In this document: in pieces, positions 20,024 to 62,118 of the stretch
How the letters are laid out: every line of letters starts with the position of its first letter
How positions within the stretch are numbered: position 1 is the first letter of the stretch
NCBI RefSeq assembly: GCF_964059015.1
Contig: NZ_OZ060383.1
Span: forward strand, 434,001-498,000
Origin: Buchnera aphidicola (Hyalopterus amygdali)
Lineage (GTDB): Bacteria; Pseudomonadota; Gammaproteobacteria; Enterobacterales; Enterobacteriaceae
DNA length: 64,000 bases
Direction: 5' to 3'
Notes under the pieces: model-generated
The model's input: the letters and a program-made list of their open reading frames with translations, nothing else
What the model was told of the DNA's origin: nothing
The model's database searches: none
Made by a program: the position numbers and the translations under genes

Positions 20024-20032
20024 CGTCTTTCC

Positions 20033-21454: not shown

Positions 21455-21565
21455 ATTTACCTTATTGAAAAAATAGAAAATCTATATATATATTATATAT
21501 ATAAAATATAAAAAAAATATCTTATTTTTTTTATAAAAAACTATTTTTATAAATATATAAATTTA

Positions 21566-22231: not shown

Positions 22232-22316
22232 GTTAAATTTAAATAAAAATTCTTTTTTTTTTAGAATCCAACAAATTTATATTTTCATATTTAAATTGAG
22301 ACATATTTTCTCTCTA

Positions 22317-38878: not shown

Positions 38879-39722
38879 ATGTACATTAATTTTCCAAAAA
38901 TCAATCCTATTATTTTCTCTATTGGTCCCTTTAAAGCTCATTGGTATGGTTTTATGTATTTTATAAGCTTTATTTTTGCTATATGGTATGGAAAAAAAAA
39001 ATGAAAAAATAACAGATATAGAAAAAATAGATAAATTGTTATATGTCATTTTTATATGTTCATGTATTGGAGGTCGAATCGGATATATAATTTTTTATAA
39101 TTTTTCATATTTCTCTCAAAATATACTATGTTCCATACATATCTGGGAAGGGGGAATGTCATTCCATGGTGGATTAATCGGAGCAACACTCGCTATATAT
39201 TATTTTTCTTTAAAAAAAAACATAAAAATATTAAAAATATCAGATTTTATAGTAAAATTAGTACCTTTCGGATTAGGTGCTGGAAGATTAGGGAATTTTA
39301 TTAACGGTGAATTATATGGCCGCGTAGCACCAAATTTTTCATATTCATTTCTTTTTCCTAGTACATACAGTGAAGATTTAAAAATAGCTCGTGACAATAC
39401 TGAATTACAATGCATATTTAACAAATATGGTGCTCTGCCTCGTCACCCTTCACAACTATATGAGTTTTTTTTAGAAGGTATTATTTTATTTATTATAATC
39501 TATTTTTTTAGCAAAAAAAACAGAAAAATAGGGAGTATTAGTGCTGTATTTTTAATTAGTTATGGAATATTAAGAATAATCAGCGAATTTTTTAGAGAAC
39601 CAGATCCTCAAATTGGACTATTTAAAAACATGATAACTATGGGTCAGATATTGTCTATTCCAATGATTTTAATTGGATGTATAATAATATTTAATGTTTG
39701 CTATAAAAAAACTTTAAGTTGA
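38879..39722 (+). CDS. lgt: Prolipoprotein diacylglyceryl transferase, frameshifted at a 10-A run
   Basis: From ATG 38879 the frame encodes INFPKINPIIFSIGPFKAHW, aligned with the start of E. coli Lgt, and then hits TGA right after an A10 run (38992-39001). The rest continues in the next frame to 39722. Removing one A joins them into about 280 residues (E. coli 291). HGGLIG and the family signature GAGRLGNFINGELYGR are intact, and about seven membrane segments are predicted by eye. Lgt attaches diacylglycerol to lipobox cysteines. thyA starts 6 bases after the stop. Either slippage restores some product, the gene is recently dead, or the run length is a sequencing error. Confidence 0.9.
38992..39001 (+). 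repeat. A10 run that breaks lgt
   Basis: Ten consecutive A. Nine (or twelve) would keep lgt in frame. The conserved Lgt sequence on both sides places the break here and nowhere else. Confidence 0.9.
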
Positions 39723-39728
39723 GGTCCT

Positions 39729-40523
39729 ATGAAACAATATTTACAATTAATAAAAAAAATAATTAAAAAAGGAAATTTAAAAAAAGATCGAACGGGGACC
39801 GGAACATTATCTATTTTTGGACATAATATGAAATTTAACTTAAAAAAAGGGTTCCCTTTAATTACGACAAAAAAATGTCATATACCATCTATTATTCATG
39901 AATTATTATGGTTTCTTAAGGGGGAAACAAATGTTAAATACTTAAATAATAATAAAATATCAATTTGGAATAATTGGGCAAATAAATTTGGTGATCTAGG
40001 ACCAATTTATGGAAAACAATGGCGAAGTTGGGAAACATGTGATGGAAAAAAAATAGATCAAATCGAAAATGTATTAAATCAATTAAAAAAAGACCCTGAT
40101 TCAAGAAGAATGATAGTATCTAGTTGGAATGTTGGAGAAATCGATAAAATGTCATTATCTCCATGTCATATAATATTTCAATTTTATGTGTCAAAAAAAA
40201 AATTGAGTTGTCAACTATATCAACGTTCATGCGATGTATTTCTTGGTTTACCATTTAATATAGCTAGTTATGCAACACTCATACATATGATAGCACAACA
40301 ATGTAACCTCAAAATTGGAGATTTTTTATGGACAGGAGGAGATGTTCACTTATATAAAAATCATGTTGAGTTAGCTAAGAAACAAATACTCAGAATACCC
40401 CGAAAATTACCAGAACTAATTATAAAAAGAAAACCTAAATCATTGTTTGATTATAACATCAAAGATTTTAAAATCGTTAGATACGAACCTCATCCTACAA
40501 TTAAAGCAGAGATATCTATATAA
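39729..40523 (+). CDS. thyA: Thymidylate synthase
   Basis: The 264-residue protein equals E. coli ThyA and methylates dUMP to d[20 protein letters not shown] lies near 20; the catalytic Cys lies in [13 protein letters not shown], with [18 protein letters not shown] near 165 and DVHLYKNH near 205. An A10 run at 40193-40202 is in frame. GAGG precedes the ATG, and the gene is 6 bases from lgt, as in the E. coli lgt-thyA operon. Confidence 0.98.
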
Positions 40524-40582
40524 AAAACGTTATTTATTTATACTGAACAAAAAATATTTATATTCTCAAAAGGAGTAATTTG

Positions 40583-41908
40583 ATGAAAATAAAATATATA
40601 TATATAAAAACATGGGGCTGTCAAATGAATGAATATGATTCCTCCATGATAAAAAAATATTTAGAAAAAACAGGAAAGTACTTAATTAGTACAAAACCTG
40701 AAAAGTCAGACATTTTAATTTTAAACACGTGTTCTATAAGAGAAAAAGCTCAAGAAAAAGTTTTTCATCAATTAGGAAGATGGAAAAAATTAAAAAATAA
40801 AAATCCCAATATTATTATTGCTGTAGGAGGTTGTGTAGCAACACAAGAAGGTCAAGAAATATTTAAACGAGCAAATTATGTAGATATTATATTTGGCACT
40901 CAAACTTTACATAAATTACCTAAAATGATAAATGAAATAGAAAAAAATAGACGATTTATCATTGATATTAGTTTTCCTAAATTAGAGAAATTTAAGTATT
41001 TTTTAGAACCTAAACAAACAGGATATACAGCTTCTGTTTCTATAATGGAAGGATGTAATAAATATTGTTCATTTTGTGTAGTACCATATACCAGGGGACA
41101 TGAAATCAGTCGTCCGTCGGATGATATTTTATTAGAAATATCTAGTTTATCTGAAAATGGTATTAAAGAAATTAATTTATTAGGACAAAATGTTAATGCA
41201 TATCAAGGACCAACTTTTAATGGAAAAATTTGTGTTTTTTCAGAACTACTACAACTGGTTTCTGAAATAGAAGGCATCGAAAGAATTCGTTTTACTACAA
41301 GTAATCCACTTGAATTCACTGATGATATTATTTCAGTATATCGAGACACACCGAAATTAGTTAGTTTCCTTCATCTCCCAGTACAAAGCGGATCGAATAG
41401 AATACTTCAACTAATGAAAAGATCATATACAACAGAAGAATATGAAGAAATTATTAAAAAACTTTTGAAAGCTCGTCCAAATATTCAAATTAGTTCAGAT
41501 TTTATTGTAGGATTTCCCACTGAATCTGAAGAAGATTTTCAAAATACTATCAATTTTATAAAAAAAATAAATTTTGATATGAGTTTTAGTTTTATATATT
41601 CCAATCGACCAGGTACACCTGCTTCTAAAATAAAAGACGATATTGATTTAAAAGAAAAAAAAAGACGTTTATATGCCTTACAAGATTGTATAAACAAACA
41701 AACTATGTCATGGAGTAGAAAAATGTTAAAAAGTACACAATCTGTTTTAGTAGAAGGAGTATCTAAAAAAAATATTATGGAATTATACGGAAGAACAGAA
41801 AACAATAGAATTGTAAATTTTAAAGGATCATATAATATGATTGGAAAATTTGTTAAAATAAAAATCAAAAAAGTACATACATATTCATTACAAGGTGAAC
41901 TAATTTAA
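40583..41908 (+). CDS. miaB: tRNA-2-methylthio-N6-dimethylallyladenosine synthase MiaB
   Basis: The 441-residue radical-SAM methylthiotransferase (E. coli 474) thiomethylates i6A37 of tRNAs. The N-terminal cluster cysteines ([41 protein letters not shown]) and the radical-SAM motif CNKYCSFC near 155 are intact. The C-terminal TRAM domain is present but the protein is about 30 residues shorter than E. coli. AGGAG lies 7 bases before ATG 40583; a TTG three bases earlier is less likely. The phoH-like ybeZ that follows in E. coli is missing. Confidence 0.97.
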
Positions 41909-41914
41909 AATTCC

Positions 41915-42390
41915 ATGAACAAGAAAAATAATATTGTTTTACAAGTTCAAATAAACTGTAAAAATATTGAAAATATACCAAAAAAACATATTTTTTTAAA
42001 ATGGATTGAAAAAGTACTACATAAAAAAAAAATGTTTATTTTATTACAGTTAGAATTGTAGATAAAATAGAAATAAAAAATCTAAATTATAAATATAGAA
42101 GAAAAAATACATCAACAAATATTTTATCATTCCCACTTAATTTTTTTTTTAAAAAAAATAAAATTTTATTAGGAGATATAGTTCTATGTAAAAAAATAAT
42201 TGAAGAAGAATCTTTTAAATATAATAAAAAATTAGAATCACGTTGGGCACATATGGTAATACATGGAACACTACATCTATTAGGATACGATCACAAAAAA
42301 AATAAGGAAAAAAATATTATGGAAAAAATAGAAAATAAAATTATGTTGTCTTTAAATTATGAAAAACCATATTTTCTAAAAAATTCTTAA
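41915..42390 (+). CDS. ybeY: Endoribonuclease YbeY, frameshifted at a 10-A run
   Basis: The frame from ATG 41915 runs to an A10 tract (42023-42032) and then ends at TAG. The conserved remainder lies in the frame reached by adding one A (or losing two): TVRIVDKIEI, NTSTNILSFPL, GDIVLCKK and the metal site HGTLHLLGYDH, to TAA at 42390. The joined length is about 158 residues (E. coli 155). YbeY acts in 16S rRNA 3' maturation and ribosome quality control and is usually important, so retained function by slippage is plausible. It lies between miaB and corC as in E. coli, minus ybeZ. Confidence 0.9.
42023..42032 (+). repeat. A10 run that breaks ybeY
   Basis: Ten consecutive A. Eleven (or eight) would keep ybeY in frame. 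Homology to YbeY switches frame at this point. Confidence 0.9.
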
Positions 42391-42472
42391 TTTTTTTAAA
42401 AAATTATTTTAACCTATCTCTTTCTACCTATAGAATAATAAAATATATTTTAAAATAGATAATCATAATACT

Positions 42473-43354
42473 ATGAGTAAGAAAGATATAAAAAAAAGAG
42501 ATAAAATTAGTAGGAAAGGTTTTTTTTCCATTTTATTAAATCAAATTTTTCATGACGAACCAAAGAATAGAGAAGAACTATTAGTATTAATTCGCGATTC
42601 AGAACAAAACGAACTAATTGATCAAGATACTTGTGATATGTTAGAAGGAGTTATGCATATTGCAAAGAAAAAAATTAAAGATATTATGATTCCAAGAACA
42701 CAAATGGTGACATTAAAATTAAATTATAACCTTAATAAATGTCTTGATGTAATCATCGAATCTGCACATTCACGTTTTCCAGTAATGAGTAAAGATCAAA
42801 ACTATGTAGAAGGCTTATTAATAGCAAAAGATTTGTTGCCGTTTATGAAAAATTCAATAGATATTTTCTCTATAAAAAATATATTAAGATCACCTGTTGT
42901 AGTTCCAGAAAGTAAATCTGTCGATAGAATGCTAAAAGAATTTCGTTCGCAAAGAAGTCATATGGCTATAGTAATAGACGAATTTGGAGCAGTATCAGGA
43001 TTAGTAACAATAGAAGATATTCTTGAATTAATTGTAGGAGAAATTCAAGATGAATACGATAATGCAGAACAGGTTAATATTAGAAAATTAAAAAAATGCA
43101 AATTTTCTGTTAAGGCATTAACAGAAATTAAAGAATTTAATGACATCTTTAATACTAATTTTATCGATGAAGAAGTAGATACTATTGGTGGATTAGTTAT
43201 GAAAGCATTTGGACATTTACCAAGTAGAGGAGATAGTATTAAAATTAATGGATATAAATTTGAAGTTTCTGTGGCTGATAGTCGAAAAGTTATACAAATA
43301 TATGTCACAATTCCAGAAAATAAAATTCCAACAATATTTAAAACAAACAGTTAA
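42473..43354 (+). CDS. corC: CorC/YbeX CBS-domain protein
   Basis: The 293-residue protein (E. coli YbeX 292) has two CBS domains (about 65-190; MIPRTQMVTL, RSHMAIVIDEFGAVSGLVTI) and a C-terminal CorC/HlyC domain (about 205-285; EVDTIGGLVMKAFGHLPSRGD). It is linked to Mg/Co efflux and ribosome metabolism. It stands after ybeY as in E. coli; lnt, which follows ybeX in E. coli, is absent and the 210 bases to leuS hold no recognisable gene. Confidence 0.94.
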   Translation: MSKKDIKKRDKISRKGFFSILLNQIFHDEPKNREELLVLIRDSEQNELIDQDTCDMLEGVMHIAKKKIKDIMIPRTQMVTLKLNYNLNKCLDVIIESAHSRFPVMSKDQNYVEGLLIAKDLLPFMKNSIDIFSIKNILRSPVVVPESKSVDRMLKEFRSQRSHMAIVIDEFGAVSGLVTIEDILELIVGEIQDEYDNAEQVNIRKLKKCKFSVKALTEIKEFNDIFNTNFIDEEVDTIGGLVMKAFGHLPSRGDSIKINGYKFEVSVADSRKVIQIYVTIPENKIPTIFKTNS

Positions 43355-43597
43355 TTTCACAACATTAAAATATTTATATATTTTTCAAATAAGACTCAAT
43401 TGTACTTTATAATTTATTGTTAAACTTATAAAATAAATAATAATACATTACAAAAACATACTGAAATTTGAAAACTAAATATCCCCTTTTTAAAAAAAAA
43501 TTATTATCCATCAAAAAAAGTTAAAAAATATTTAATTGATATTTTTTAAAAGAGTTAAATTTTTTTGAATTATTATATATTTTATACGAGAAAAATT

Positions 43598-46180
43598 ATG
43601 GAAAAAGAATATTCACCAAAAAAAATTGAACCATGTGTACAAAAATACTGGAAAGATAAAAAAACCTTTCATGTTTATGAAGATAATAAAAAAGAAAAAT
43701 ATTATTGCTTGCCTATGCTTCCTTATCCTTCTGGAAAATTACATATGGGTCATGTAAGAAACTATACAATTAGTGATGTTATTGCAAGATATCAAAGAAT
43801 GTTAGGAAAAAATGTTTTACAACCTATCGGTTGGGACGCTTTTGGATTACCTGCTGAAGAAGCTGCTATTAAAAATAACAGTTTACCATCTGATTGGACA
43901 GATAAAAATATAAAATATATGAAAAAACAACTGCAATCTCTAGGATTTAGTTATGATTGGAGCCGAGAAATAACTACATCGAAACCAAATTATTACCGTT
44001 GGGAACAATGGTTTTTTACTAAATTATATAAAAAAAAGTTAGTTTATAAAAAAAATAGTTTTGTCAACTGGTGCCCATATGATAAAACTGTTTTAGCCAA
44101 TGAACAAGTGATACGTGGTTGTTGCTGGAGATGCCAAAATAAAATTATAACAAAAAAAATACCACAATGGTTTATAAAAATTAGAAAATACGCAGAATCT
44201 TTATATAACGATTTAAATAAATTAGAAAATTGGCCTGAAAAAGTAAAAAATATGCAAAAAAATTGGATTGGTCGATTAAAGGGATTTGAAATTATTTTTA
44301 ATATTTTTAATAGTACTAAAAAAATAAAAGTATTCGTTAAAAAATTAGATAAAATAATGGGAGAAATATATATCTCTATATCGCCTTTTCATAAATTTTC
44401 TAAAAAAATCGCTAAAGAAATACCTGAAATAAAAAATTTTATAAAAAAACAAGCTATTGAAAACCTTTCACAAGAAGATATAGAAAAAACAAGATTCGAA
44501 GGAATCAATAGTAATATGTTTGCTATTCATCCTATTACAAATCAAAAAATACCTATTTGGATAGCAAATTTTGTTCTAAAAGAATATGGAACTAAAGCAG
44601 TTATATCTATTCCAGAAGATAATCAAAATGATTTAAATTTTTCTATAAAAAATAATTTAGACATAAAATATCTTATTAAAAAAGATAAAAATATAACATT
44701 ATGTAGTGCATTTGAAAATAAAAAAAATATATTATTTAACTCTGAAAATGTTAGTTTGTTGGATCAAAAAAACAACATTTTAAAAATACATAAAATGCTA
44801 TCTCAAAAAAAAATCATTAAAAAAAAAATAATTTATAAATTACAAGATTGGTGTATATCAAGACAACGTTATTGGGGTGCACCTATTCCAATGGCAACAA
44901 CAAAAAGTGGAAAAATTATAGCAATACCAGAAAAAAATCTCCCGATAGTTTTACCAAAAATAAAAAATGATTCTTACTCTCTACAAAAATCTATTTATAA
45001 TAATTCTGATTGGACTAAAATTAAAATCGGTGATCAAGATCTTATCCGAGAAGTAGATACTTTTGATACATTTATGGAATCATCTTGGTATTATGCAAGA
45101 TATACTTGTCCAAATTTCAACAAAGGTATGATAGATCCGATATCATCGAAATATTGGCTACCTGTGGATCAATATATTGGAGGGATAGAACATGCTACTA
45201 TGCATCTAATATATTTTAGATTTTATCACAAACTCCTTCGCGATTTTAAATTAGTACAATTTGATGAACCAGTAAAAAATTTATTATGTCAAGGAATGGT
45301 GCTTTCTAAAGCATTCTATCAATTTGATAAAAAAAAACAACGTCATTGGATTCACCCATCTTCTGTAAAAATAGAAAGAAATATACAAGGAGATATTATT
45401 AATTACTACAATAAAAAAAACAAAAAAGAAGTAATATATGCAGGTATGATTAAAATGTCTAAATCTAAAAATAACGGTATTGAACCAGAGATAATAATTA
45501 ATCGTTATGGTGCTGATACAATTCGTTTATTTATGATGTTTGCTGCGCCTATAGAATCATCATTAGAATGGAGAGAATCAGGCGTAAAAGGAATTTATCG
45601 TTTTTTAAAAAAAATTTGGAAATTAGTATTTGATTATATTGAAATAAAGCATACACATAAAAATATACATTTTAATTTATTAAATAAAAAACAAAAGAAA
45701 ATTTATTATTTATTACATAAAACTATTTTTAAAGTTTCCGATGATATAGGTCGTCGAAAAACATTCAATACTGCCATTTCTGCAATTATGGAGCTAGTAA
45801 ATAAATTAATAGATTTTCAAATAGAAAATGAAGAAGATAAATGTATTATTAAAGAATCTTTATTAGCAATTATTAAAATGCTTTATCCATTTACGCCACA
45901 TTTTTGTTTTATTTTATGGAAATATTTAAATAAAAAATCTTCTATTGATCATGAAAAATGGCCTGTTTTTGAAAAAAAAATTTTATTTCAAGATAAATAT
46001 AAATTAATTGTTCAAATTAATGGAAAAAAAATATGGATTTTAGAAGTAAAAAATAATTTAAAAAAAGAAGAAATTTTACTTTATGCAAAAAATAATTCAA
46101 CAGTTCAAAAAAAATTAGAAAATTTAAAGATAAAAAAAATAATTTATATTCATGAAAAAGTAATTAATTTTATAACATGA
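43598..46180 (+). CDS. leuS: Leucyl-tRNA synthetase with degenerate editing site
   Basis: ATG 43598 (MEKEYSPKKIEP) matches the E. coli start, giving 860 residues, the E. coli length; codons upstream to 43565 are open but unconserved. Synthetic motifs are intact: PYPSGKLHMGH and KMSKSKNNG. The CP1 editing domain is present in length, but the threonine-rich motif at 247-252 reads VKKLDK where E. coli has TTRPDT, and 340-345 reads EDNQND for GHDQRD; only Asp251, Gln343 and Asp345 remain. Proofreading of mischarged tRNA-Leu is therefore probably lost. An A10 run at 44819-44828 is in frame. lptE, which follows in E. coli, is missing. Confidence 0.97.
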   Translation: MEKEYSPKKIEPCVQKYWKDKKTFHVYEDNKKEKYYCLPMLPYPSGKLHMGHVRNYTISDVIARYQRMLGKNVLQPIGWDAFGLPAEEAAIKNNSLPSDWTDKNIKYMKKQLQSLGFSYDWSREITTSKPNYYRWEQWFFTKLYKKKLVYKKNSFVNWCPYDKTVLANEQVIRGCCWRCQNKIITKKIPQWFIKIRKYAESLYNDLNKLENWPEKVKNMQKNWIGRLKGFEIIFNIFNSTKKIKVFVKKLDKIMGEIYISISPFHKFSKKIAKEIPEIKNFIKKQAIENLSQEDIEKTRFEGINSNMFAIHPITNQKIPIWIANFVLKEYGTKAVISIPEDNQNDLNFSIKNNLDIKYLIKKDKNITLCSAFENKKNILFNSENVSLLDQKNNILKIHKMLSQKKIIKKKIIYKLQDWCISRQRYWGAPIPMATTKSGKIIAIPEKNLPIVLPKIKNDSYSLQKSIYNNSDWTKIKIGDQDLIREVDTFDTFMESSWYYARYTCPNFNKGMIDPISSKYWLPVDQYIGGIEHATMHLIYFRFYHKLLRDFKLVQFDEPVKNLLCQGMVLSKAFYQFDKKKQRHWIHPSSVKIERNIQGDIINYYNKKNKKEVIYAGMIKMSKSKNNGIEPEIIINRYGADTIRLFMMFAAPIESSLEWRESGVKGIYRFLKKIWKLVFDYIEIKHTHKNIHFNLLNKKQKKIYYLLHKTIFKVSDDIGRRKTFNTAISAIMELVNKLIDFQIENEEDKCIIKESLLAIIKMLYPFTPHFCFILWKYLNKKSSIDHEKWPVFEKKILFQDKYKLIVQINGKKIWILEVKNNLKKEEILLYAKNNSTVQKKLENLKIKKIIYIHEKVINFIT

Positions 46181-46214
46181 ATATAAGAGTAAATAAAATG
46201 GTAATAGTATTAAT

Positions 46215-47222
46215 ATGAACATTATATACCCAGAAGAATTAAAAAAAAAATTAACACAGAAATTACATTGTTTATATATTTTATTAGGAGAAGATTTGTT
46301 TTTATTAAATAAAAATGAAAAACTAATATTAAATTTTGCAAAAAAGAAAAATTTTTTAGAAAAAAGCATTATCAATATAGAAAAAAACGCAGATTGGAAT
46401 AAAATCATTAATTTTTATAAATTAAAAAATATTTTTTTTAAAAAAAATATTTTAGTAATAAATTTTATTATAAAAAAAATAGATAAATCATTAACTAATC
46501 ATATAAATAAAATACTTTCTATTAAGAATACAGATATACTAGTAATAGTAAAATTTTATGCATTATCTAATGCTATAAAAAAAAGCAAAATAATTAAAAC
46601 ATTTGACCAAGAAAATAATATCATATCTTGTTTTACACCATACGAATGGGCATTTAAAAACTGGTTAAAATATGAGATAAAAGAAAGAAATTTAAAAATA
46701 AAACAGGATTCTCTTTTATTAATATATAAATATTACCAAGGAAATACATTATTTGCACATCAAATATTAAATATTATTTCTATTACTTGGCCATGTGAAA
46801 ATATTGAAACCGAGAAGGTAAAACAGATTATTGATAATTTTTCAATTTTTTCTCCTATACATTGGATAAATGCTATTTTCAGTCAAAATACAAAAAAAGC
46901 TATTTATATATTAGATAGTTTTTTTCAAAAAAAATACAATCCTATTTTTTTAGTTCGATCTCTCCAAAACGATTTATTAATTTTAATAAATATGAAAAGA
47001 GAAAAAAAAATAGATATAAATGCTTTTTTAAGAAAAAATAATGTTTGGCTTAATAGATCAAAATTTTTTATACATGCTCTAAATGTTATAAATTTTAATC
47101 ATTTTTTAAAAATAATTCGAATTTTACTAAAAATAGAAAAAAAAATTAAAAAAGAATATGATAACTCTGTATGGATAGAGTTAAAAACATTAACATTATT
47201 ATTATCTTTCACATCTACATAA
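46215..47222 (+). CDS. holA: DNA polymerase III delta subunit
   Basis: The 335-residue protein (E. coli 343) is the clamp-opening subunit of the clamp loader. Similarity to HolA is moderate but spans the whole protein: YPEELKKKLTQKLHCLYILLGED at the start (residues 4 on, matching RLYPEQLRAQL), YYQGNTLFAHQ near 172, FSPIHWINAIF near 213 and DNSVWIELKTLTLLLSF at the end. An A10 run at 46241-46250 is in frame. leuS-holA-nadD is the E. coli order without lptE. Confidence 0.9.
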   Translation: MNIIYPEELKKKLTQKLHCLYILLGEDLFLLNKNEKLILNFAKKKNFLEKSIINIEKNADWNKIINFYKLKNIFFKKNILVINFIIKKIDKSLTNHINKILSIKNTDILVIVKFYALSNAIKKSKIIKTFDQENNIISCFTPYEWAFKNWLKYEIKERNLKIKQDSLLLIYKYYQGNTLFAHQILNIISITWPCENIETEKVKQIIDNFSIFSPIHWINAIFSQNTKKAIYILDSFFQKKYNPIFLVRSLQNDLLILINMKREKKIDINAFLRKNNVWLNRSKFFIHALNVINFNHFLKIIRILLKIEKKIKKEYDNSVWIELKTLTLLLSFTST

Positions 47223-47234
47223 AAATAAAAAAAG

Positions 47235-47879
47235 ATGAAAGAAATATATGCAATTTTTGGAGGAAATTTTGATCCTATTCATTATGGTCATATCACCTGT
47301 GCTAAAAAATTAGTACAAGAAATTTCAATAAAAAAAATAATATTACTACCCAATCATAGACCTCCTCACCGTAATCAGACAAAAACATCTATACTAGATA
47401 AAATCAATATGATTAAGCTTGCTATTGATGGCAATCAATTATTTAAAATAAGTTACTTAGAAATAAAAAAAAATAAAATATTTTATACGATCGACACATT
47501 AAAAAAAATAAGAAGAAAAATAGGATATTTGCAACCATTATGTTTTATAATAGGTGAAGATAATCTAAATAATTTAAATCTTTGGAAGGATTGGGAAAAA
47601 ATATTATCATTATCACATTTAATTATTTGTCCTAGAAAATATGAAAAAAAAAATAATAATAAATTAAAAGAATGGATTATTTCTCATACTATTAAAGATA
47701 TTGATATATTACATAAAAAACCATATGGATATATTTTTTTCTCTACAATGCCCACTATTAATATTTCGTCAACTCAAATAAGAAAAAATTATTATGAAGG
47801 TAAAAACGCGAAAGGATTACTACCTTCAAACATAGAAAAATACATTCTATCAAAAAATTTGTATAAAAAATTATTATAA
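47235..47879 (+). CDS. nadD: Nicotinate-nucleotide adenylyltransferase
   Basis: The 214-residue protein (E. coli 213) adenylates nicotinate mononucleotide in NAD synthesis. The nucleotidyltransferase signature FGGNFDPIHYGHI is at residues 8-20, LLPNHRPPHR near 37, IGEDNLNNLNLWKDW near 108 and the C-terminal ISSTQIRKNYYEGK is the ISxTxxR motif. It begins 12 bases after holA and is followed closely by tusA. Confidence 0.96.
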   Translation: MKEIYAIFGGNFDPIHYGHITCAKKLVQEISIKKIILLPNHRPPHRNQTKTSILDKINMIKLAIDGNQLFKISYLEIKKNKIFYTIDTLKKIRRKIGYLQPLCFIIGEDNLNNLNLWKDWEKILSLSHLIICPRKYEKKNNNKLKEWIISHTIKDIDILHKKPYGYIFFSTMPTINISSTQIRKNYYEGKNAKGLLPSNIEKYILSKNLYKKLL

Positions 47880-47891
47880 AAAAATACAAAC

Positions 47892-48137
47892 ATGAAAAAA
47901 AATATTGTACTAAATTTAATTGGTCTTAGATGCCCAGATCCCATTATGTTAATAAGAAAAAAATTAAGAAAAATGAAAATCAATGAAAAAATTTTAGTTC
48001 TAACAGATGATCCGTCTACTAAAAGAGATATTCCATATTTTTGTAACTTTATGAAACATGAACTTATAGATCATGCTATTAACATAAAACCATACCGTTA
48101 TCTATTAAAAAAAGGACAAAATTTAAAGGAAAATTAA
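47892..48137 (+). CDS. tusA: Sulfur carrier protein TusA
   Basis: The 81-residue protein has the E. coli length and carries persulfide sulfur from IscS to the TusBCD/MnmA chain for 2-thiouridine in tRNA. The catalytic Cys lies in [12 protein letters not shown] near residue 10-21 (CPxP motif); [20 protein letters not shown] and PYRYLLKKG follow. In E. coli tusA is not next to nadD, so this adjacency is a rearrangement. A perfect hairpin follows the stop. Confidence 0.95.
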
Positions 48138-48163
48138 TTAAATTAGTAAAAAATATTAAACTA

Positions 48164-48194
48164 ATTAATATACACACTGTGTGTGTATATTAAT
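48164..48194. terminator. Bidirectional terminator between tusA and asd
   Basis: A perfect 14-bp stem (48164-48177 with 48181-48194) with a 3-nt loop lies between the convergent stops of tusA and asd. On the minus strand it is followed by a T-rich tract (TAGTTTAATATTTTTTAC), supporting termination of asd. The CACAC/GTGTG core gives it more stability than most spacer DNA here. Confidence 0.75.
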
Positions 48195-48217
48195 AAAGAG
48201 TATTCAATAAAAAAATA

Positions 48218-50240: not shown

Positions 50241-50267
50241 AATATTACTAATAAAATAGGCAATTTT

Positions 50268-51425: not shown

Positions 51426-51472
51426 AAACAATCTTATATATATTAATAAAAAAATAGATAATAGGAAAAAAC

Positions 51473-52552: not shown

Positions 52553-52570
52553 AAAATTTATGCTCAAATA

Positions 52571-52673
52571 CGGGGAATAAATAAAAATATTCTCCGAAAT
52601 AATTTAAAATATATTTTTAAAAAAAAATCAAATCAACTCTTTTTTAGAGTTCTAAACTGGAATTTATATTCCA
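52571..52673 (+). terminator. Three tandem hairpins between fbaA and mscS
   Basis: Hairpin 1: 52571-52579 with 52588-52596 (9 bp, one G-U, loop 8). Hairpin 2: AACTCT/AGAGTT at 52635-52640 and 52646-52651 (loop TTTTT). Hairpin 3: TGGAAT/ATTCCA at 52658-52663 and 52668-52673 (loop 4). Only the first has several G-C pairs; A/T-rich sequence with TTTTT follows it. Together they probably end the pgk-fbaA message or shape the mscS leader. Confidence 0.5.
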
Positions 52674-52708
52674 ATAAGTATTCACTTTATAAAAAGATCA
52701 AAATAAAA

Positions 52709-53560
52709 ATGAACGAATTAAATGTAGTAAGCGATATTCATCATGCTGGAAATTGGTTAATACGAAATCAAGAATTATTATTCGGATATATAATTAATTT
52801 AACATCCGCTATTATCATTTTATTTGCCGGCATGTTTGTAGCTAAAGTAATATCTAACGGAGTAAATCAAATATTAATTACACGTAATATCGATGCTACT
52901 ATTGCTGGATTTCTTTCTGCATTGATGCGATATATTATTATTACTTTCACATTAATAGCTTCATTAGGAAGAATTGGAGTACAAACTACTTCTGTCATTG
53001 CTATATTAGGAGCTGCTGGTATGGCAATTGGATTGGCGCTACAAGGTTCTTTATCCAATTTCGCAGCAGGAGTATTACTTGTAACTTTAAGACCATTAAG
53101 AGCAGGTGAATATGTAAATTTAGGTAATGTAGCAGGAACAGTCTTAAATATTCATATATTTTATACGACCTTACGTACACTAGATGGTAAAATTGTAGTG
53201 GTACCAAATAATAAAATAATTTCCGGGAACATTATCAATTATTCTAGAGAACCAGCGCGGAGAAATGAATTTTCTATTAGCGTGTCATATAACACAGATA
53301 TTGACTTAGTAATTAAAGTGCTAAGAGACGTTATAGAAAATGAAGATAGAGTTATAAAAGATCGAGATATTATTATTGGTTTAAGTGAATTAGGTCCATC
53401 ATCTTTAAATTTTGTTGTTCGATGCTGGAGTAGTACTGACCAATTAAATGCAGTGTATTGGGATTTAATGGCTAAATTTAAAAAAGCACTAGATGAAAAT
53501 AACATTAATATTCCTTACCCACAGTTAGATGTACATCTTTATAAAAAAAATAAAAATTAA
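52709..53560 (+). CDS. mscS: Small-conductance mechanosensitive channel MscS
   Basis: The 283-residue protein (E. coli 286) opens under membrane tension to release solutes. Three N-terminal membrane helices are visible (about 28-50, 68-90, 96-125); the pore helix carries the Gly/Ala-rich [20 protein letters not shown]. The conserved [19 protein letters not shown] and the cytoplasmic beta/alpha-beta domains follow. It sits after fbaA as in E. coli. Its retention suggests osmotic protection is still needed inside the host cell. Confidence 0.96.
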
Positions 53561-53620
53561 TTTTTTATATACTTATAATACACATATTTTAATTTTTTAT
53601 TTATACAAGATGAGGGATTT

Positions 53621-56600
53621 ATGTTTTTTGTTTATCAATCAAATCAAATAAATATTTTATTTTTAGAAATGTATAAAATAATTAAAAATAAACCTCTTCT
53701 TAATATCTTTGAAAAAGAAGTAATTATTAATGAAAACAAAATTTTATTTCAATATTTAAACTTTTTTATAGCTAAAAAAACAGGAATTTCAGCAGACTTT
53801 GAATTAATTTATCCTAATGTTTTTATTTGGAAAATATTTAGACAAATTTTTCCTGAACTTGAAAAAAGAAATATATTTTCAAAGTCTATTCTTACTTGGA
53901 AAATTATGAAAATTATAGAAAAAAATAATTTTATTCAATTTATAAAAAAAAGTGATAAGATAAATAAAAAATTTGATTTTTCATTTTTAATGGCTTGTTT
54001 ATATGAACAATACCTTTTGTATAGACCAAAATGGATAAATGAATGGGAAAAAAAATATAAAAAAACGTCTATTTTAGACCACAATAATATATGGCAAGTA
54101 CAATTATGGATAAATATTATCCAATGTACAAAATCACTCAAACAACCATCACATCATTTTTCAAATTTGTTTGAAAAGTTTAAAATACTTATTAAAACAA
54201 AAAAAATCAAATTTCCGAAAAGAATTTTTATTATTTCTTCTTTTAAATTAAATCCGACATATATGGAAATATTTAAAGAGATCAGTATATATACAGATAT
54301 ATATTTCTTATTTATCACTGCTCACAAAAAAAATATATGTCATACAAGTTTAATTAATAAAAAATCATCTTTAGAAAAAGATATTTTAGAAAACTCATTA
54401 ATACATTTGTGGGAAAAACATGAAAAATATTATTTGTTCTTTTTTAAAAAATTTAAAAATATACAATTTAATTATTTTTTTCAAAAAAACAAAAAAAAGA
54501 ATTTATTAAATGCAATAAAAAATAATTTTTTAAAAATTAATGAAAAAAAAACAACATCAAAAAAAAAATATTTTTTAGATAAAGATAACTCTATTTCAAT
54601 AAATGTTTGCCATAATAAAAAACATGAAATTGAAATTTTGTATCATACATTATTAAAAATTTTTAATGAGAATTCAAAAATAAAAGCTGGCGATATTGTT
54701 GTCACCTCATTTTCATTGGAAAATTATATAAATTATATTAATTGTATATTTAAATCTGATAACAAAAAAGAAACAATACCTTTTTACATATGTAAAAAAT
54801 ATTCTAATTCAATAAAAAAAATATTATTTATATTTAATAAAATATTAAATATTTCAAATATCCGTTTTAATAATGAAGAAATATTAGATTTAATTAATAT
54901 ACCAGATATAGCAAATAATTTTTTTATATCAGAAGAAGAAATAAATATTTTATATAATTGGATTGAAAAGGCAAATATAAGATGGGGTTTTCACGAAAAA
55001 GAAAAAAATAGCTTGTTTTATTTTAAAAAAAATTATAATTCCTGGTTTTATGGCATTAAAAAATTACTAACTAGTTATGCTATAAACGAAAAAGAAAAAA
55101 TTTGGAATGATACTTTATCTTTTACTACTATTGATAGTTCAAGAGAAAAATTAATAGAAAAATTAATAATTTTAATTAAAACAGCTGAAAAATGGCATAA
55201 AAAATTGTCTTATCCAAAAAAAATTGCATCTTGGCGATCATTATTTCAATGTTTTATCAACGACTTTTTTTATCAGAATAAAAATCAAAACAAAAAATTA
55301 GAAAAAAATATTTCTTTTATTAAAAATAATTGGGTTAAAATGATTGACGATGCACTAATATCGAATTATGAAAAAAAAATTCCTATTAGTGTACTGAAAA
55401 AAAAATTTTCACACATTATGAATAATGTTAATTATAAAAAATTTTTACCAGGAGTAATAAACTTTTGTCATCCATCTTTAATATGCTATATTCCATTTAA
55501 AATAAAATGTCTTCTTGGAGCAGATAATAAAGAAATACCTAAAAAAGATATCACAAATTCTTTTAATTTACTAAATAAGCATTCATATATAGGTGATTAT
55601 AATACTTGTAGAGAAAGTTATTATATATTCCTTCAAAATTTTATTTCTACTCAAGAACTATTCTATATCAGCTACGTAGGATATTCCGAAAAAAATAATA
55701 GTAAAATCTATCCGTCAATATTAATCGATCAATTATTAAATTATATAAAATTAAATTTCTATTTTTTAAAAAATCAATATATAAAAAATATTTTAAAAAA
55801 ACATAAAAAAAATCATCTTTATGAAATAAAAAATATTGATACTAATATAGTTAAAAAAACAAAAAAAATAAAAAAAGAAATATATAATCAAATTTTTCCT
55901 ATGCAAAAATCAGAATTAAATCCTTTAATGAAAATTAATTTAAAAAATTTAATTCAATTTTGGAAAAATCCAATAAAATATTTTTTTAACATTGTATTAA
56001 ATGTAAATTTTCAAATAAAAAAAAAAATATTATAACGGAACCATTTTCAATAAATTACTTAGATAAATTTAAAATAAATGAAATGCTTTTTAAAAAACTA
56101 TTAAAAAATGAAGATGTAAAAAATACATTTAAAAAAATTATTTTATCTGGTGTTTTACCATATAAAAATTTTGGATTAATTTTCTTAAAAAAAACAAAAA
56201 AAGAAATAGAAGAGATAATAAAAGTAATTAAAAAATATCGTATTTTACCTAAAAAAGAAAAATTTAATATCTATATTCAAAAATATAATATTATTGGAAA
56301 TTTAAATGAAATACAAAATACAGGTCTACTTAGATGGAAATTAGGTACTATTAATCACCAAGACCGCATATCTCTATGGATAGAACACTTAATTTACTGT
56401 ATTTTAGGAGGAACTGAAGAAAGTAAAATAATAGGATATAAAAAACAAATTTACTCTTTTTATCCTTTGCCAAATAATATAGCAAATGAATACCTTCTAA
56501 ATTATGTTCAAGGATACATAAAAGGAATAAAAAATCCTCTATTACTCATAAAATCTGGATTAAATTGGCTTGATCAAATATATGATAAAAAAAATCGTTG

Positions 56601-56793
56601 TATTAGTGAATCTAGTATCATTAAAAGAAAAGCATATAAAGTATTATGTAAAACATGGATAGGAGATACATATATACAAGGAGAAAAAGAAGATTTATAT
56701 ATAAAAAATGTTATTTCTACATTGGATATAAAAAAAATTTGTAAAATTTCCCAAAAATGGTTTACTCCAATACTAAAATATCAAAAAAAATAA
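53621..56793 (+). CDS. recC: Exodeoxyribonuclease V subunit RecC, frameshifted at an 11-A run
   Basis: The first frame (53621-56035, 804 residues) and a second (conserved from about 56029 to 56793) are both RecC. The break is at an A11 run, 56017-56027. Adding one A or removing two joins NFQIKKK to NIITEPFSINYLDKFKINEM, matching E. coli EPFELDALSRYQLN, for about 1057 residues (E. coli 1122). The start follows GAGGG. C-terminal markers are LLRWKLGTINHQDRISLWIEHLIYC and GGTEES. RecC recognises Chi and holds RecB and RecD together. ptrA, between recC and recB in E. coli, is missing. Confidence 0.92.
56017..56027 (+). repeat. A11 run that breaks recC
   Basis: Eleven consecutive A. Twelve (or nine) would keep recC in frame. 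RecC homology continues without a gap in the other frame directly after the run. Confidence 0.9.
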
Positions 56794-56816
56794 AAATACT
56801 TTATAAAATTAATATA

Positions 56817-59800
56817 ATGAAAAAAAAATTAAATATATTAAAAATTCCTTTTAGTGGAATTAATTTAATTGAAGCTTCTGCTGGAACTGGAAAAACTACT
56901 ACAATTGCACTATTATACTTACGTTTATTATTAGGACTAACAGAAGAAAAAAAAATAGGAAAATTACTGGTACAAGAAATATTAGTAGTAACTTTCACCA
57001 ATGCTGCAAAAGAAGAACTATATATACGAATAAAAGAAAACATTGAAAAACTATATATATCTTGTATAAATAAAAAAAGTGAAGATCCAATATTCGGGTA
57101 TTTTTTAAAAAAAATAAAAAATTTAGAAAAAGCTATTTCTATATTGAAAAAAGCAAAAACAAATATAAACAATGCTGCTATTTATACAATACATGGATTT
57201 TGTCAAGATATATTTAAATATAGTTCATTTAATTTAAACAAAAAAATAATTGAAAATGAATCTTTTTTATATTTACAAGCAACACAAGATTTTTGGAGAT
57301 ACTTATTTTACAATCTTCCAAAAAATATTATTGAAATTATTTATGAAGAGTACAATAATCCAGATGTACTCTTAAAAGAAATTAAAGCAATATTAACAAC
57401 AAATTCATCAATACAATTTAAAAAAAAATTCCATAAAAATCAAAATTTAATAACGTTTCATGAGAATATTATAAATAAAATTAATATTTTCAAAAAAAAA
57501 TGGTTATGTTATTACATAAAAATATTAAAAATAATTTCTCAATCAAAAGTTAATAAAAGAATATACCATGAATCTAATATTTTTAAATGGCAAAAAAAAA
57601 TTACACAATGGGCACAATCTAAAACTAAAAACTATAAAATTCCAATTTTTTTAAAATATTTTTCGAAAGAAAATATAGAAAAAAAAACAAATTATAATAT
57701 ACAAGAACATCATTTTTTTGAAGACATTGAAAAAATATTAAAAAAAAATTTTTCTTTAAAAAGCATAATTTTATTTTATGCTATAAAAAATATTCCCAAA
57801 TTTATAAAAAAAGAAAAGGAAAAAAAAGAATTATTAGGATTTGATGATTTATTAGAAATTCTTTTAAAAAAAATAAAAAAAGAAAAATTTTTAAGAAAAC
57901 TAATAATTAAAAAATATCCAATAGCATTAATTGATGAATTTCAAGATACTAATATTACGCAATATCAAATTTTTAATACTTTATATAATAATGAAAAAAC
58001 AGCATTGTTTCTTGTTGGTGATCCTAAACAATCAATATATAGTTTTAGGGGGGCAGATATTTTTACATATTTATGTGCTAAATCAAAAATTAAGAATTAT
58101 TATTATCTTGATATAAATTGGCGCTCCTCAATACATATGTGTAAAGCAATCAATTATTTATTTTCACGAAATAAAAATTCATTTTATTTTGAAAATATTC
58201 CATTTCAACCTGTTTTACCATCGCATAAAAATATAAATATGCAATTTAAAATAAAGGGAGAGGCACAAAAAGCAATTCATATATTTTTTAAAAAAAAAGA
58301 AAAAGTATTCATCGAAGAATATCAAGATTGGATTGGAAAACAATGTGCAAATGAAATTAGTTACTGGTTACACTGTTCAAAAAATGGGAGAGCAATAATT
58401 ATAAACAAAGATCAAGAAGAAAAAAAAGTAACAGAAGAAGATATTGTGGTATTAGTTAAAAATAAAAAAGAAGCTAAAATTATTATAGATTCATTAAAAA
58501 AAGTTAATATTTCATCAACATATTCATCCCCTCATAAAAATATATTTCAAACTTTTGATGCATATGAACTTCTTACTATACTCAAATCTATTGCAAATCC
58601 AACAGATATAAAATTATTAAAAAAATCTATTTTAATACATATTTTAAATAAAATTATTATTCGTAAAATAAGAGAACAAAAAAAAGAAAAAATATCATAT
58701 TTATTAATAGAAAAATTATATAAATATAATAATATATGGAAAAAAATAGGTATTTTCCATACTATCAAAACTATGATATTGGAATATCAAAAATATGCTA
58801 ATGATGTTGAATTATATACAAATCAACAAAAAAATGTAAATTTTTTGCATATAGCCGAACTGTTAGAAAAACAATGTGAAGAATGCTATACACATCATGC
58901 TCTAATTCGTTGGTTTGAAAAAAAAATTTTAGAAAAAAATATTCCATTAGACAACGAAAACGTCCGAAACATCCAAAAAAATAAATCTATAAAAATTATT
59001 AGTATACATAAATCAAAAGGATTACAATATCCTATTGTATGGATACCTTTTAGTATAGATTTTAAGGAATCAAAATTATACTTATATCATGACAGAAAAA
59101 CATCAAAAAAAATTTTTGATAATAATAAAAACCCTATGACTCTAAAAAAGTCTGATGAAGAAAGACTGGCAGAAGACTTACGTTTTTTATATGTATCTTT
59201 AACAAGAGCTATGTATCATTGTAGTATAGGAATAGCTTCTTTAATTAAATACAAAAGACAAAAAAGAGAAGGGAATGATAATGATATTCATAAAAGTGCT
59301 TTAGGATATATTATAAAAGGTGGAAAAGTTATAAACTATAAGGAATTATTATATGAATTAAATCTTTTAAATAAAAAAATATACTTTGAATTAAAATATG
59401 AAGAAATAAAATTAAAACGTCATTTTAGTCAAAATGATATTTATTTATTATCTAAACCTATATTTTTACTTAAAAAAATAGAAAGTTCTTTTCAAATAAC
59501 AAGTTTTACACAATTAAAAAAAGAAAAAAAACATTTAGATAACTGTCAATATAAATATATAAAATCAATTTTTTATAAAAAAAAAGATGAAAAACCAACA
59601 ATTCACAACTTCCCCAGAGGTAACGAAACAGGGATTTTGATTCATAAAATATTAAAACAAATAAATTTTCATGTTCCATTAAATATAAACTATTTTAGTT
59701 TTATGTTAAAAAAAAACGGATTCTCAGAAATTTGGACACCAATATTAATATCCTGGATCAACAATATTTTAAACCTCAAATTAAATCATTTAAAAATTAC

Positions 59801-60296
59801 TTTAGGAACACTAAAACAAACAAAATATGCAAAAGAACTAGAATTTTATTTATCAATAAAGAATAAATTTAACAAAAAATTTTTTAATGAAATTGTTCAC
59901 TCTTTTAAAATAAATTCTAATTCTATAGATTCAAAAATATATCTTCATCCTGTTAGTGGGGTTATAAAAGGATTTATTGACTTAGTTTTTGTTTGGAAAA
60001 AACGATACTATATAGTTGACTATAAATCTAATTATTTAGGTGAAAATGATGATTATTATTCATTTAAAAATATAGAAAAGGAAATGATTGAAAATCAATA
60101 TAATTTACAGTATCAACTATATACCTTAGCACTACATCAATATCTTAAGAAAAAAATAAAAACATATCACTATACAACTCATTTTGGAGGAATATTTTAC
60201 ATTTTTTTACGAGGAATTAATACAAAAAATAGCATTTTTTATTGTGTTCCAGATTATTCATTAATTAAAAAATTAATGTATTTATTTTCAATCTAA
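56817..60296 (+). CDS. recB: Exodeoxyribonuclease V subunit RecB
   Basis: The 1159-residue helicase-nuclease (E. coli 1180) unwinds 3'-5' and cuts DNA in the RecBCD complex. ATG 56817 aligns with the E. coli start; upstream codons to 56757 overlap recC and are unconserved. Walker A ASAGTGKTTTIALLYLRLLLG is near residue 21; ALIDEFQDTN, GDPKQSIYSFRGADI, SIHKSKGLQYPIVW and RFLYVSLTRAMYHC are further helicase motifs. The nuclease site GFIDLVFVWKKRYYIVDYKSN near 1060 keeps its catalytic Asp and Lys. No frame break was found. Confidence 0.96.
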   Translation: MKKKLNILKIPFSGINLIEASAGTGKTTTIALLYLRLLLGLTEEKKIGKLLVQEILVVTFTNAAKEELYIRIKENIEKLYISCINKKSEDPIFGYFLKKIKNLEKAISILKKAKTNINNAAIYTIHGFCQDIFKYSSFNLNKKIIENESFLYLQATQDFWRYLFYNLPKNIIEIIYEEYNNPDVLLKEIKAILTTNSSIQFKKKFHKNQNLITFHENIINKINIFKKKWLCYYIKILKIISQSKVNKRIYHESNIFKWQKKITQWAQSKTKNYKIPIFLKYFSKENIEKKTNYNIQEHHFFEDIEKILKKNFSLKSIILFYAIKNIPKFIKKEKEKKELLGFDDLLEILLKKIKKEKFLRKLIIKKYPIALIDEFQDTNITQYQIFNTLYNNEKTALFLVGDPKQSIYSFRGADIFTYLCAKSKIKNYYYLDINWRSSIHMCKAINYLFSRNKNSFYFENIPFQPVLPSHKNINMQFKIKGEAQKAIHIFFKKKEKVFIEEYQDWIGKQCANEISYWLHCSKNGRAIIINKDQEEKKVTEEDIVVLVKNKKEAKIIIDSLKKVNISSTYSSPHKNIFQTFDAYELLTILKSIANPTDIKLLKKSILIHILNKIIIRKIREQKKEKISYLLIEKLYKYNNIWKKIGIFHTIKTMILEYQKYANDVELYTNQQKNVNFLHIAELLEKQCEECYTHHALIRWFEKKILEKNIPLDNENVRNIQKNKSIKIISIHKSKGLQYPIVWIPFSIDFKESKLYLYHDRKTSKKIFDNNKNPMTLKKSDEERLAEDLRFLYVSLTRAMYHCSIGIASLIKYKRQKREGNDNDIHKSALGYIIKGGKVINYKELLYELNLLNKKIYFELKYEEIKLKRHFSQNDIYLLSKPIFLLKKIESSFQITSFTQLKKEKKHLDNCQYKYIKSIFYKKKDEKPTIHNFPRGNETGILIHKILKQINFHVPLNINYFSFMLKKNGFSEIWTPILISWINNILNLKLNHLKITLGTLKQTKYAKELEFYLSIKNKFNKKFFNEIVHSFKINSNSIDSKIYLHPVSGVIKGFIDLVFVWKKRYYIVDYKSNYLGENDDYYSFKNIEKEMIENQYNLQYQLYTLALHQYLKKKIKTYHYTTHFGGIFYIFLRGINTKNSIFYCVPDYSLIKKLMYLFSI

Positions 60297-60313
60297 TAGG
60301 AAATTTAATCATT

Positions 60314-62118
60314 ATGCATATTTCTGATTTATTAAAAAAATTAGTAAAAAAAAAATTATAAGTGTAATGGATTATTCTTTTGCACAATTTATTTCAAATA
60401 ATAACGCTATTTGCATGTTGGTAGCTGCTTGTGTTAGTTTTGAAAAAAAAAATGGTCATATTTTTTTACCCATAGAATACTTTGAAAAAAAATATTTTTT
60501 TTCTATTTTAAAAAAAGAATATACTAAAAAAATTTTAGAATGCTTAAATAAAAAAAAAATAAATTGGTCATTAGAATTATTACAGTGTTCATCATGTAGT
60601 GATGGTTCTAGTATCACTCCTTTAGTAATATTTAAAAAAAAAATATATCTCTATAAGATGTGGAAAGCAGAAAAAGTATTTCTAGAATTTTTATCACGCA
60701 AAAATCAACTTAAAGAAACTAATATAGAAAAAAAACACAAAATATTAAATAATTTATTTCCTAGAAAAAAAGATTATTTACAAAAAACAGCAGTCGCATT
60801 AACTCTAATACATAACATTATTTTTATCACTGGAGGTGCTGGAACAGGCAAAACTACGATAATATTAAAAATTATTATCGCATTAATAAAAAGTTCAACA
60901 AAAAAAATAAAAATTCAATTATCTGCACCAACAGGAAAGGCTACTGCACGTTTAATAGAGATGTTAAACACAACATGGTTTTATAATTCCTTTACTGAAA
61001 AAGAAAAAAAACAACTTTTTTTTGACCCTATAACTTTACATCAATTACTAGGAATTTCAAAAATATCTGAAAAAATTTTTTTTAATAAAAATAATAATAT
61101 AAATGTTGATGTTTTAATCATTGACGAATCATCAATGATAGACATTCTAATGATAAACAATATATTATCAGCACTTAATAAAAAAACTAAAATAATTTTT
61201 ATTGGTGATTATAAACAATTGAAACCAATACAATCAAGTTCTATTTTAAAATACATTATTAATTACGCAAAGGATGGATATAGCTTTGAAACAAAGTTAA
61301 TTCTAAAAAAAATAATGCAAAATGATATTTTTTTAGATAAAAAAATAAATAAAAAAAATACATCATACATAAGTGATAAAATATGCGTTCTTGAAAAAAA
61401 CTACAGATTTGAAAAAAAAACGGGGATCTATATATTATCAAATGCAATATATAACAATTCAGAGAAAGTTTTTGATAAATTATTTAAAAATTTAATAAAA
61501 AATGTTTTTTTTTACGAAGTAAATTCTTTAACACAATATAAAAATATGATTAATACTATTATTTATAGTAATAAAATATATTGGGATCAAATACAAAAAA
61601 AAGAAAATATAGAAACAATATTAAAATTTTTAAAACATCATCAAGTTTTATGTTTAGTAAGAAACAGCTATTTTGGCGTAAATTTTATTAATAAAATTTT
61701 AGAAGATGAAATGTATAAAAAAAATATCATTAATAAATACTTTTATATAAATAATCAATTGTGGTATATAGGAAAACCTATCCTAATAACAGAAAATAAT
61801 AAATATTTAGGAATATCAAATGGAGATATGGGAATTACAAATTTTGATGAAAAAAATATCTTACAAGTATCTTTTTTAAGAAAAAATAATATTATTAAAA
61901 ATATCCCCGTAAATATATTAAGCAATTACGAAACCTCTTGGTCGATTACTGTACATAAAGCACAAGGTTCTGAATTTGATAATATATCATTAGTACTTCC
62001 AAATAAAGATTTAAAAATTTTGCAAAAAGATATTTTATATACTGCTATTACAAGAGCACGAAAAACAATAAAAATTTTTTCAATAAAAGATATATTGATG
62101 AAAAGTCTTAAAATTTAA
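60314..62118 (+). CDS. recD: Exodeoxyribonuclease V subunit RecD, frameshifted near its start
   Basis: ATG 60314, with AGGAAA about 10 bases upstream, encodes [14 protein letters not shown] and then leaves frame in an A10 run (60346-60355). The other frame continues at once with [17 protein letters not shown], so adding one A gives about 601 residues (E. coli 608) aligned with the E. coli N-terminus. The inner ATG 60367 has no ribosome-binding site. RecD is the 5'-3' helicase: Walker [58 protein letters not shown]. Two further A10 runs (60443-60452, 60550-60559) are in frame. Its stop overlaps the argA stop (62115-62118). Confidence 0.92.
60346..60355 (+). repeat. A10 run that breaks the recD N-terminus
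   Basis: Ten consecutive A, ten codons after the proposed ATG. Eleven (or eight) would join the N-terminal codons to the main recD frame. Confidence 0.8.

What the first reader, a model, noticed from the sequence alone, without database searches (positions are those of the whole stretch)
38879..62118. Four genes broken only at A10-A11 runs: a genome-wide slippage layer
Seen: all four frame breaks found in clearly conserved genes of this window (lgt, ybeY, recC, recD) fall exactly on runs of 10 or 11 A; I found none elsewhere apart from the programmed site in prfB and the stop-ridden endA. Runs of the same length remain in frame in dsbA (28583), prfB (34965), thyA (40193), leuS (44819), holA (46241) and recD. 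If slippage occurs, the in-frame genes must also yield out-of-frame transcripts, so the runs would act as a general dampener of expression. recC and recD being hit together would make RecBCD assembly depend on two independent slippage events.
Basis: partly seen in the sequence, partly recalled or inferred. Interest (0 to 1): 0.8.

Follow-up and report, generated by a model that had tools for sequence, protein, structure and literature searches.

The report
Aphid-symbiont genes split at poly-A runs
In this aphid-symbiont (probably Buchnera) genome several conserved genes are out of frame exactly at runs of ten or more A, a known habit of such symbionts in which slippage of the RNA polymerase probably rescues part of the product; the unexpected part is that one of them, ybeY, is split at the same run in most of the genomes of the genus that were examined.

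Summary
The window lies in a 647-kb genome, evidently Buchnera aphidicola (the name is inferred).

Over 51 gene families in 25 genomes, out-of-frame A runs are 0.1% at A7-A8, 0.7% at A9, 15% at A10 and 23% at A11. Intact genes are short of A11 (0.53 of expectation) and A12+ (0.26), hardly of A10 (0.93).

ybeY is out of frame at the same run in 26 of 36 genomes of the genus, 23 with exactly A10, and both pieces are as constrained as in the ten intact genomes. That fits neither a sequencing error nor a fresh pseudogene.

Best explanation: slippage on runs of about ten A makes a mixed mRNA pool that partly restores the frame, as published for Buchnera and Blochmannia. 'General dampener' is weakly supported; RecBCD needing two slippages is doubtful. 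A transcriptome study of Buchnera reported no restored frame, so rescue of these genes is inferred, not shown.

The parts
38879..39004 (+). lgt, first piece, ends at a stop just behind A10 38992-39001
   Evidence: frames; Pfam LGT on 38879-38998
38976..39722 (+). lgt, second piece (open frame from a TTG; main part of the gene)
   Evidence: TIGR00544; out of frame in 9 of 25 genomes
38992..39001 (+). A10 run at the lgt break
41915..42061 (+). ybeY, first piece (48 codons and a stop)
   Evidence: frames
42025..42390 (+). ybeY, second piece, in the -1 frame relative to the first
   Evidence: TIGR00043; PF02130
42023..42032 (+). A10 run at the ybeY break, out of frame at the same codon in 26 of 36 genomes of the genus
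53621..56035 (+). recC, first piece (804 codons)
   Evidence: TIGR01450, positions 1-840
56083..56793 (+). recC, second piece with the C-terminal domain
   Evidence: PF17946
56017..56027 (+). A11 run at the recC break
60314..60361 (+). recD, short first piece (15 codons and a stop)
   Evidence: frames; N-terminal comparison
60346..60355 (+). A10 run at the recD break
60367..62118 (+). recD, main open frame with its own ATG four codons behind the run
   Evidence: TIGR01447
21566..22231 (-). cysH, second piece (open frame from a GTG)
   Evidence: NF002537, TIGR02057
22253..22262 (-).
16877..16889 (-). A13 in frame inside ftsB (16807-17004)
36098..36108 (+). A11 inside the open frame 35987-37498 (lysS, name recalled), in frame
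54559..54568 (+). second long run of recC, A10, in frame

Best explanation
These are genes of an AT-rich insect symbiont that lost their genomic frame by an indel in a long A run and are kept because RNA polymerase slips on runs of about ten A or more, adding or dropping an A, so that part of the mRNA pool is in frame again. Shown here: the breaks; their step at A10; the presence of the ybeY break through most of the genus, and of an lgt break in all eight examined genomes of the window's clade, with no other damage in those genes. Inferred: that transcripts are restored, and that the protein made this way is what selection preserves. For recC, recD and cysH of this genome alone, recent inactivation on the way to loss is nearly as likely.
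For: Step in the out-of-frame share between A9 (6/923) and A10 (41/270) and none of note at A7-A8 (4/4678). Avoidance in intact genes begins at A11 (0.53) and grows at A12+ (0.26). ybeY out of frame in 26 of 36 genomes with no second frameshift or stop in the aligned part of any of the 36 and pN/pS of 0.34 behind and 0.54 before the break, against 0.42 and 0.53 in the ten intact genomes. lgt and recC of this genome show like pN/pS on both sides of the break (0.22-0.33 and 0.32-0.40 for lgt; 0.47-0.56 and 0.45-0.57 for recC). Both phases of break occur (53 events that one added A in RNA would bring into frame, 13 of the other kind; 33 and 12 without ybeY), which a ribosomal -1 shift alone does not explain. 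Published: insertions in A/T runs rise exponentially with length in Buchnera RNA (PMC5574713); 12-50% corrected transcripts (review passage in PMC5009743); about 30% (passage in PMC3017870).
Against: [quoted passage not shown] No RNA data were available here. Low pN/pS does not exclude recent loss: two genes of the damaged cys cluster of G015 give 0.16 and 0.25. Some breaks sit on A9 or shorter runs (6/923 at A9, 4/4678 at A7-A8), and 13 internal frame changes among the kept alignments lie near no run of 7 or more (8 of 82 with a wider margin). The skew towards one phase could come from deletion bias in replication.
Confidence: 0.7

Rival explanations
1. Ordinary, mostly recent gene inactivation: long A runs are indel hot spots, so the first disabling mutation usually falls there and the genes are on their way out.
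For: Fits recC, recD and cysH of this genome. cysH is also broken at the same run in G015, whose cys cluster is decaying. PMC3164680 counts 42 of 69 pseudogenes in four genomes as single-genome homopolymer mutations.
Against: Does not fit ybeY (26 of 36 genomes, no second damage) nor lgt in the window's clade (8 of 8 examined). Old pseudogenes in the same stretches carry 11-21 frameshifts and 9-15 stops with pN/pS 0.62-0.84. A hot-spot account alone gives no step between A9 and A10 unless A9 breaks are purged.
Confidence: 0.3
2. Ribosomal frameshifting on the A run (a -1 slip on A AAA AAA) rather than slippage of the polymerase restores the frame.
For: The ybeY break is in the -1 phase in 24 of 26 genomes, and ribosomes slide on lysine AAA runs (title and abstract start of PMC4363877 in the listing).
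Against: It would work on A7-A9 as well, yet breaks there are rare. The other phase also occurs. No downstream structure at ybeY: mean z +0.13 over 26 genomes.
Confidence: 0.15
3. Base-calling or assembly errors in homopolymers.
For: No reads could be checked. The breaks lie where long-read methods err, and those of recC and recD are known from this one assembly.
Against: ybeY has the same break in 26 of 36 assemblies of the genus, 23 at exactly A10; errors would also hit A8 and A9, where this window has 0 of 102 and 0 of 40.
Confidence: 0.1
4. Internal initiation behind the run gives a shortened but working protein, so the frame no longer matters.
For: recD has an ATG at 60367 four codons behind its run. 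In ybeY most of the family model (from position 31 of 146) lies behind the break, and codons 1-33 are less constrained (pN/pS 0.54).
Against: The part of ybeY before the run is constrained just as in intact genomes (0.54 and 0.53) and free of stops and other frameshifts where aligned. recC has no such option for a whole protein.
Confidence: 0.12

Closest known systems
Poly(A) frameshifts rescued by transcriptional slippage in Buchnera and Blochmannia (Tamas et al. 2008; not held, known here from passages in PMC5009743, PMC3017870 and PMC3164680)
   Same: Same kind of organism, same run type and length, genes otherwise intact; corrected transcripts were measured there.
   Different: Other genes; no transcripts measured here. 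The ybeY break is shared by most of the genus.
Ancient frameshifts kept in homopolymers of Blochmannia (Wernegreen, Kauppinen and Degnan 2010; not held, title seen in the reference list shown)
   Same: A frameshift in a long A/T run kept across species without decay.
   Different: Another genus. ybeY is named as a frameshifted gene for Blochmannia turneri in PMC4389277; whether at the same codon was not checked.
Transcription indels in Buchnera RNA (Traverse and Ochman 2017, PMC5574713; parts 1-3 of 6 read)
   Same: Insertions in A/T runs rise with run length, to the maximum of 11 in Buchnera.
   Different: They saw no restored reading frame.
prfB programmed +1 frameshift
   Same: An obligatory, conserved frame change inside one gene; present in this window.
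   Different: Ribosomal, with a CTT TGA C site and a Shine-Dalgarno-like box. At ybeY no downstream structure was found.

Membership tests
Poly(A) frameshift rescued by transcriptional slippage | Single frame change inside a long A or T run | tested here: met
   lgt, ybeY, recC, recD, cysH
Poly(A) frameshift rescued by transcriptional slippage | Rest of the gene intact and under constraint | tested here: met
   ybeY, lgt and recC, cysH behind the break 0.24-0.33; recD has no other break by the aligner
Poly(A) frameshift rescued by transcriptional slippage | Length-mixed transcripts including in-frame ones | not testable with these tools
   no RNA reads; PMC5574713 saw none restoring a frame in Buchnera
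Ancient, selectively kept homopolymer frameshift | Same break in many species | tested here: met
   ybeY 26 of 36; not met for recD (1 of 25 by eye)
Ancient, selectively kept homopolymer frameshift | Single origin at the base of the group | tested here: inconclusive
   six changes on the tree; broken root cheaper in 54, tied in 5, dearer in 11 of 70 rootings; outgroup branch too long
Programmed -1 ribosomal frameshift site | Stimulating structure behind the slip site | tested here: not met
   70 bases behind the run in 26 genomes, mean z +0.13
Decayed pseudogene | Several stops and frameshifts, relaxed constraint | tested here: not met
   a very recent pseudogene is not excluded for recC, recD and cysH

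The most novel reading that the evidence does not exclude
ybeY of Buchnera has been locked, for most of the history of the genus, in a genomically out-of-frame state at an A10, so that every full-length YbeY molecule depends on slippage. The run has become a fixed expression-setting element, a transcriptional counterpart of the prfB site. Return to an in-frame gene has happened several times and by different routes (A8, A9, an interrupted run, shifted flanks), in none of the 36 genomes by A11.
Probability: 0.33. Interest if true: 0.7.

Novelty: new member of a known kind. Interest (0 to 1): 0.42.

Why it matters
If transcripts bear it out, gene finding in AT-rich symbionts should treat lone breaks at A>=10 as readable rather than dead, and ybeY would be a natural assay, replicated in many species, of how much slippage a cell can live on. 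The step between A9 and A10 gives a number against which models of polymerase slippage can be held.

Tried and rejected
Sequencing or assembly error as the general cause was rejected on the genus-wide ybeY pattern; it stays open for breaks found in this genome alone.

A link to loss of mismatch repair was tested and not found: mutS (25947-28352) is a pseudogene in, or not found in the fetched stretch of, 8 of 25 genomes, but out-of-frame runs per genome, ybeY left out, do not differ (medians 2 and 1, Mann-Whitney p 0.63), nor does the number of A>=10 runs (p 1.0).

RNA structure behind the ybeY run: none. Absence of AAG in the ybeY run as a sign of selection was dropped: AAG is only about 6% of Lys codons here.

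5' bias of long runs: 24 of 120 A>=10 places lie in the first 50 codons against 49 of 397 A8 places (p 0.05). It is stronger when every genome is counted (30% against 10%), but those are not independent, and a 5' bias is already published (passage in PMC2831843).

Rooting with a distant Buchnera (L001) failed because of a branch of 3.99. I first took 14443-15465 for truD from memory (also in a notebook entry); the search names it NlpD-like.

Limits of the tally: 27 of 1,221 alignments were left out as decayed or partial (listed); breaks within 12 residues of a gene end are not counted; one recC break (G016) was scored away from an A13 that lies 9 bases on. With a wider margin the counts are A7 3/2870, A8 3/1808, A9 8/923, A10 41/270, A11 11/47, A12 and longer 7/22.
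Full report
What was claimed.

The window. It is G000:C1:434001-498000 of a 647-kb genome in three contigs; the genus as held has 36 genomes, this one included, of about 0.6-0.7 Mb. Gene content, size and the match of three contig lengths (G015 641,454, G018 641,794, G009 640,681) to Table 1 of PMC3164680 (passage) say Buchnera aphidicola of aphids of the subfamily Aphidinae. Names of prfB, lysS, thyA, leuS, holA, miaB and corC are recalled; lgt, ybeY, recB, recC, recD, cysH, ftsB, nadD and an NlpD-like gene were checked with NCBIfam, and dsbA, mutS and rpiA with Pfam.

The breaks. lgt, ybeY, recC and recD change frame at A10, A10, A11 and A10. A frameshift-aware alignment of 51 gene families in 25 genomes recovers the first three and adds cysH on the minus strand; recD is too near its start for the aligner and was compared by eye in the 25 genomes, where this one alone looks out of frame. 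A break would be called on an A>=10 run over 1.05% of the aligned coding bases of the window, so the clustering is not chance.

Run length decides. Of 1,221 gene-by-genome alignments 1,194 were kept (27 dropped, listed). Out of frame: A7 3/2870, A8 1/1808, A9 6/923, A10 41/270, A11 11/47, A12 1/12, A13 3/8, longer 2/2; coding-strand T runs of 7 or more 1/1122. Thirteen further frame changes lie near no run of 7 or more. A9 against A10: Fisher p 8e-22. These are counts of genomes, not of independent events; 21 of the 66 events at runs of 8 or more are ybeY. A wider margin gives the same step. In 1,081 intact genes, against 60 shuffles of synonymous codons, A6-A9 are slightly more common than expected (1.05-1.16), A10 nearly as expected (0.93), A11 (0.53) and A12 or more (0.26) rare. 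Tolerance of breaks and avoidance of runs both change at about ten A, just above the 9-base RNA:DNA hybrid used in PMC5574713. That points to the polymerase more than to the ribosome, for which seven A would do (recalled).

ybeY. The run at codons 37-38 is out of frame in 21 of 25 genomes and, with the other 11 genomes of the genus, in 26 of 36. 23 of the 26 have exactly A10 in one phase; G011 has A9 and a C in the same phase; G024 (A13) and G139 (A9) are out of frame in the other phase. The ten intact ones have A8 (three), A9 (three), runs of A4-A6 (three) or an A10 with other flanks (G012); none has A11. No genome shows a second frameshift or a stop in the aligned part. pN/pS is 0.34 behind and 0.54 before the break in broken genomes, 0.42 and 0.53 in intact ones. 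Among 119 places with A>=10 in at least one of the 25 genomes, this one is shared most widely.

ybeY elsewhere. In a search of 99 genomes of the family, nearly all of different genera, matches held stops in G000, G005, G058 and G068 (G068 is 49% complete and was not followed up). Of five genomes looked at closer because their matches began late or held a stop, G053 has a frame change at codon 40 with an A9, G058, G124 and G092 one at codons 15-22 (low identity near the start, uncertain), and G131 none. A frameshifted ybeY is also mentioned for Blochmannia turneri (PMC4389277). So breaks of this gene are not confined to Buchnera, though the other intact matches are the rule.

History. On a tree of two neighbouring proteins the ybeY state changes at least six times. 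A broken root is cheaper in 54 of 70 rootings, tied in 5 and dearer in 11; an outgroup gave 6 against 6 on a very long branch. Whether there was one early break with later repairs, or several breaks, is not settled; the shared phase and flanks favour the former.

Other recurrent genes. lgt is out of frame in 9 of 25, among them all 8 examined genomes of the window's clade, at runs that differ in place and phase, so the state seems older than the present runs. recC is out of frame in 8 of 25 at five places, nadD in 8, dsbA in 4. Of 66 events at runs of 8 or more, 53 belong to the class that one added A in RNA would bring into frame (33 of 45 without ybeY). This agrees with the insertion bias measured in Buchnera RNA but could also reflect deletion bias in replication.

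Mechanism. The best reading is partial rescue by transcriptional slippage. Corrected transcripts are published for this group: 12-50% (review passage) and about 30% (passage). Against it stands the transcriptome-wide survey of Buchnera, of which I read parts 1-3 of 6: it saw no case of a restored frame. For recC, recD and cysH of this genome, rescue and recent loss cannot be told apart: two genes of the damaged cys cluster of G015 look just as constrained (0.16 and 0.25), while old pseudogenes give 0.62-0.84.

A general damping of in-frame genes is plausible but, judged by avoidance, small at A10. RecBCD needing two slippages is doubtful, as recD can start at 60367. In nine sampled 20-kb stretches outside the window, 4 breaks in 146 genes fall on runs of 9 or more, so the window is richer than that sample. 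Published counts are 1-18 homopolymer frameshifts per Buchnera genome.

Novelty. The kind is known. I found no description of a genus-wide ybeY break in what I saw of the held library (searches; mostly listings, with passages or sections of six papers read), but the key subscription papers are not held and supplements could not be read, so it may be listed there.

Noticed in passing
window 16877-16889 (ftsB, minus strand): A13 inside the coding strand of ftsB, in frame; a run of ten or more A at this place in 13 of 23 kept genomes, out of frame in two (G019, G023).
   Followed up: partly
window 7202-7861 (rpiA, minus strand): A>=10 run near codon 7 shared by 14 of 25 genomes and in frame in all of them by the aligner, which is weak so near a gene start.
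   Followed up: no
window 25947-28352 (mutS): mutS is intact here but a pseudogene in four relatives and not found in the fetched stretch of four others; no relation to the number of broken runs.
   Followed up: yes
G002 and G015, cys genes (counterparts of window 17042-24020): Sulfate-assimilation genes are heavily decayed in G002 and freshly damaged in G015; this window keeps them, apart from the cysH break.
   Followed up: partly
L219 2700 (A14), L223 15789 (A11), L227 4873 (A11), L224 7022 (A9): Four further breaks at A runs in this genome outside the window; genes not named.
   Followed up: no
L223 2162-5646: A long gene with a frame change at residue 1079 and no run of 7 or more nearby; the cause was not examined.
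   Followed up: no
L214 (G053:C1:539300-540300): ybeY of another genus (about 1.1 Mb genome) with a frame change at codon 40 beside an A9.
   Followed up: partly
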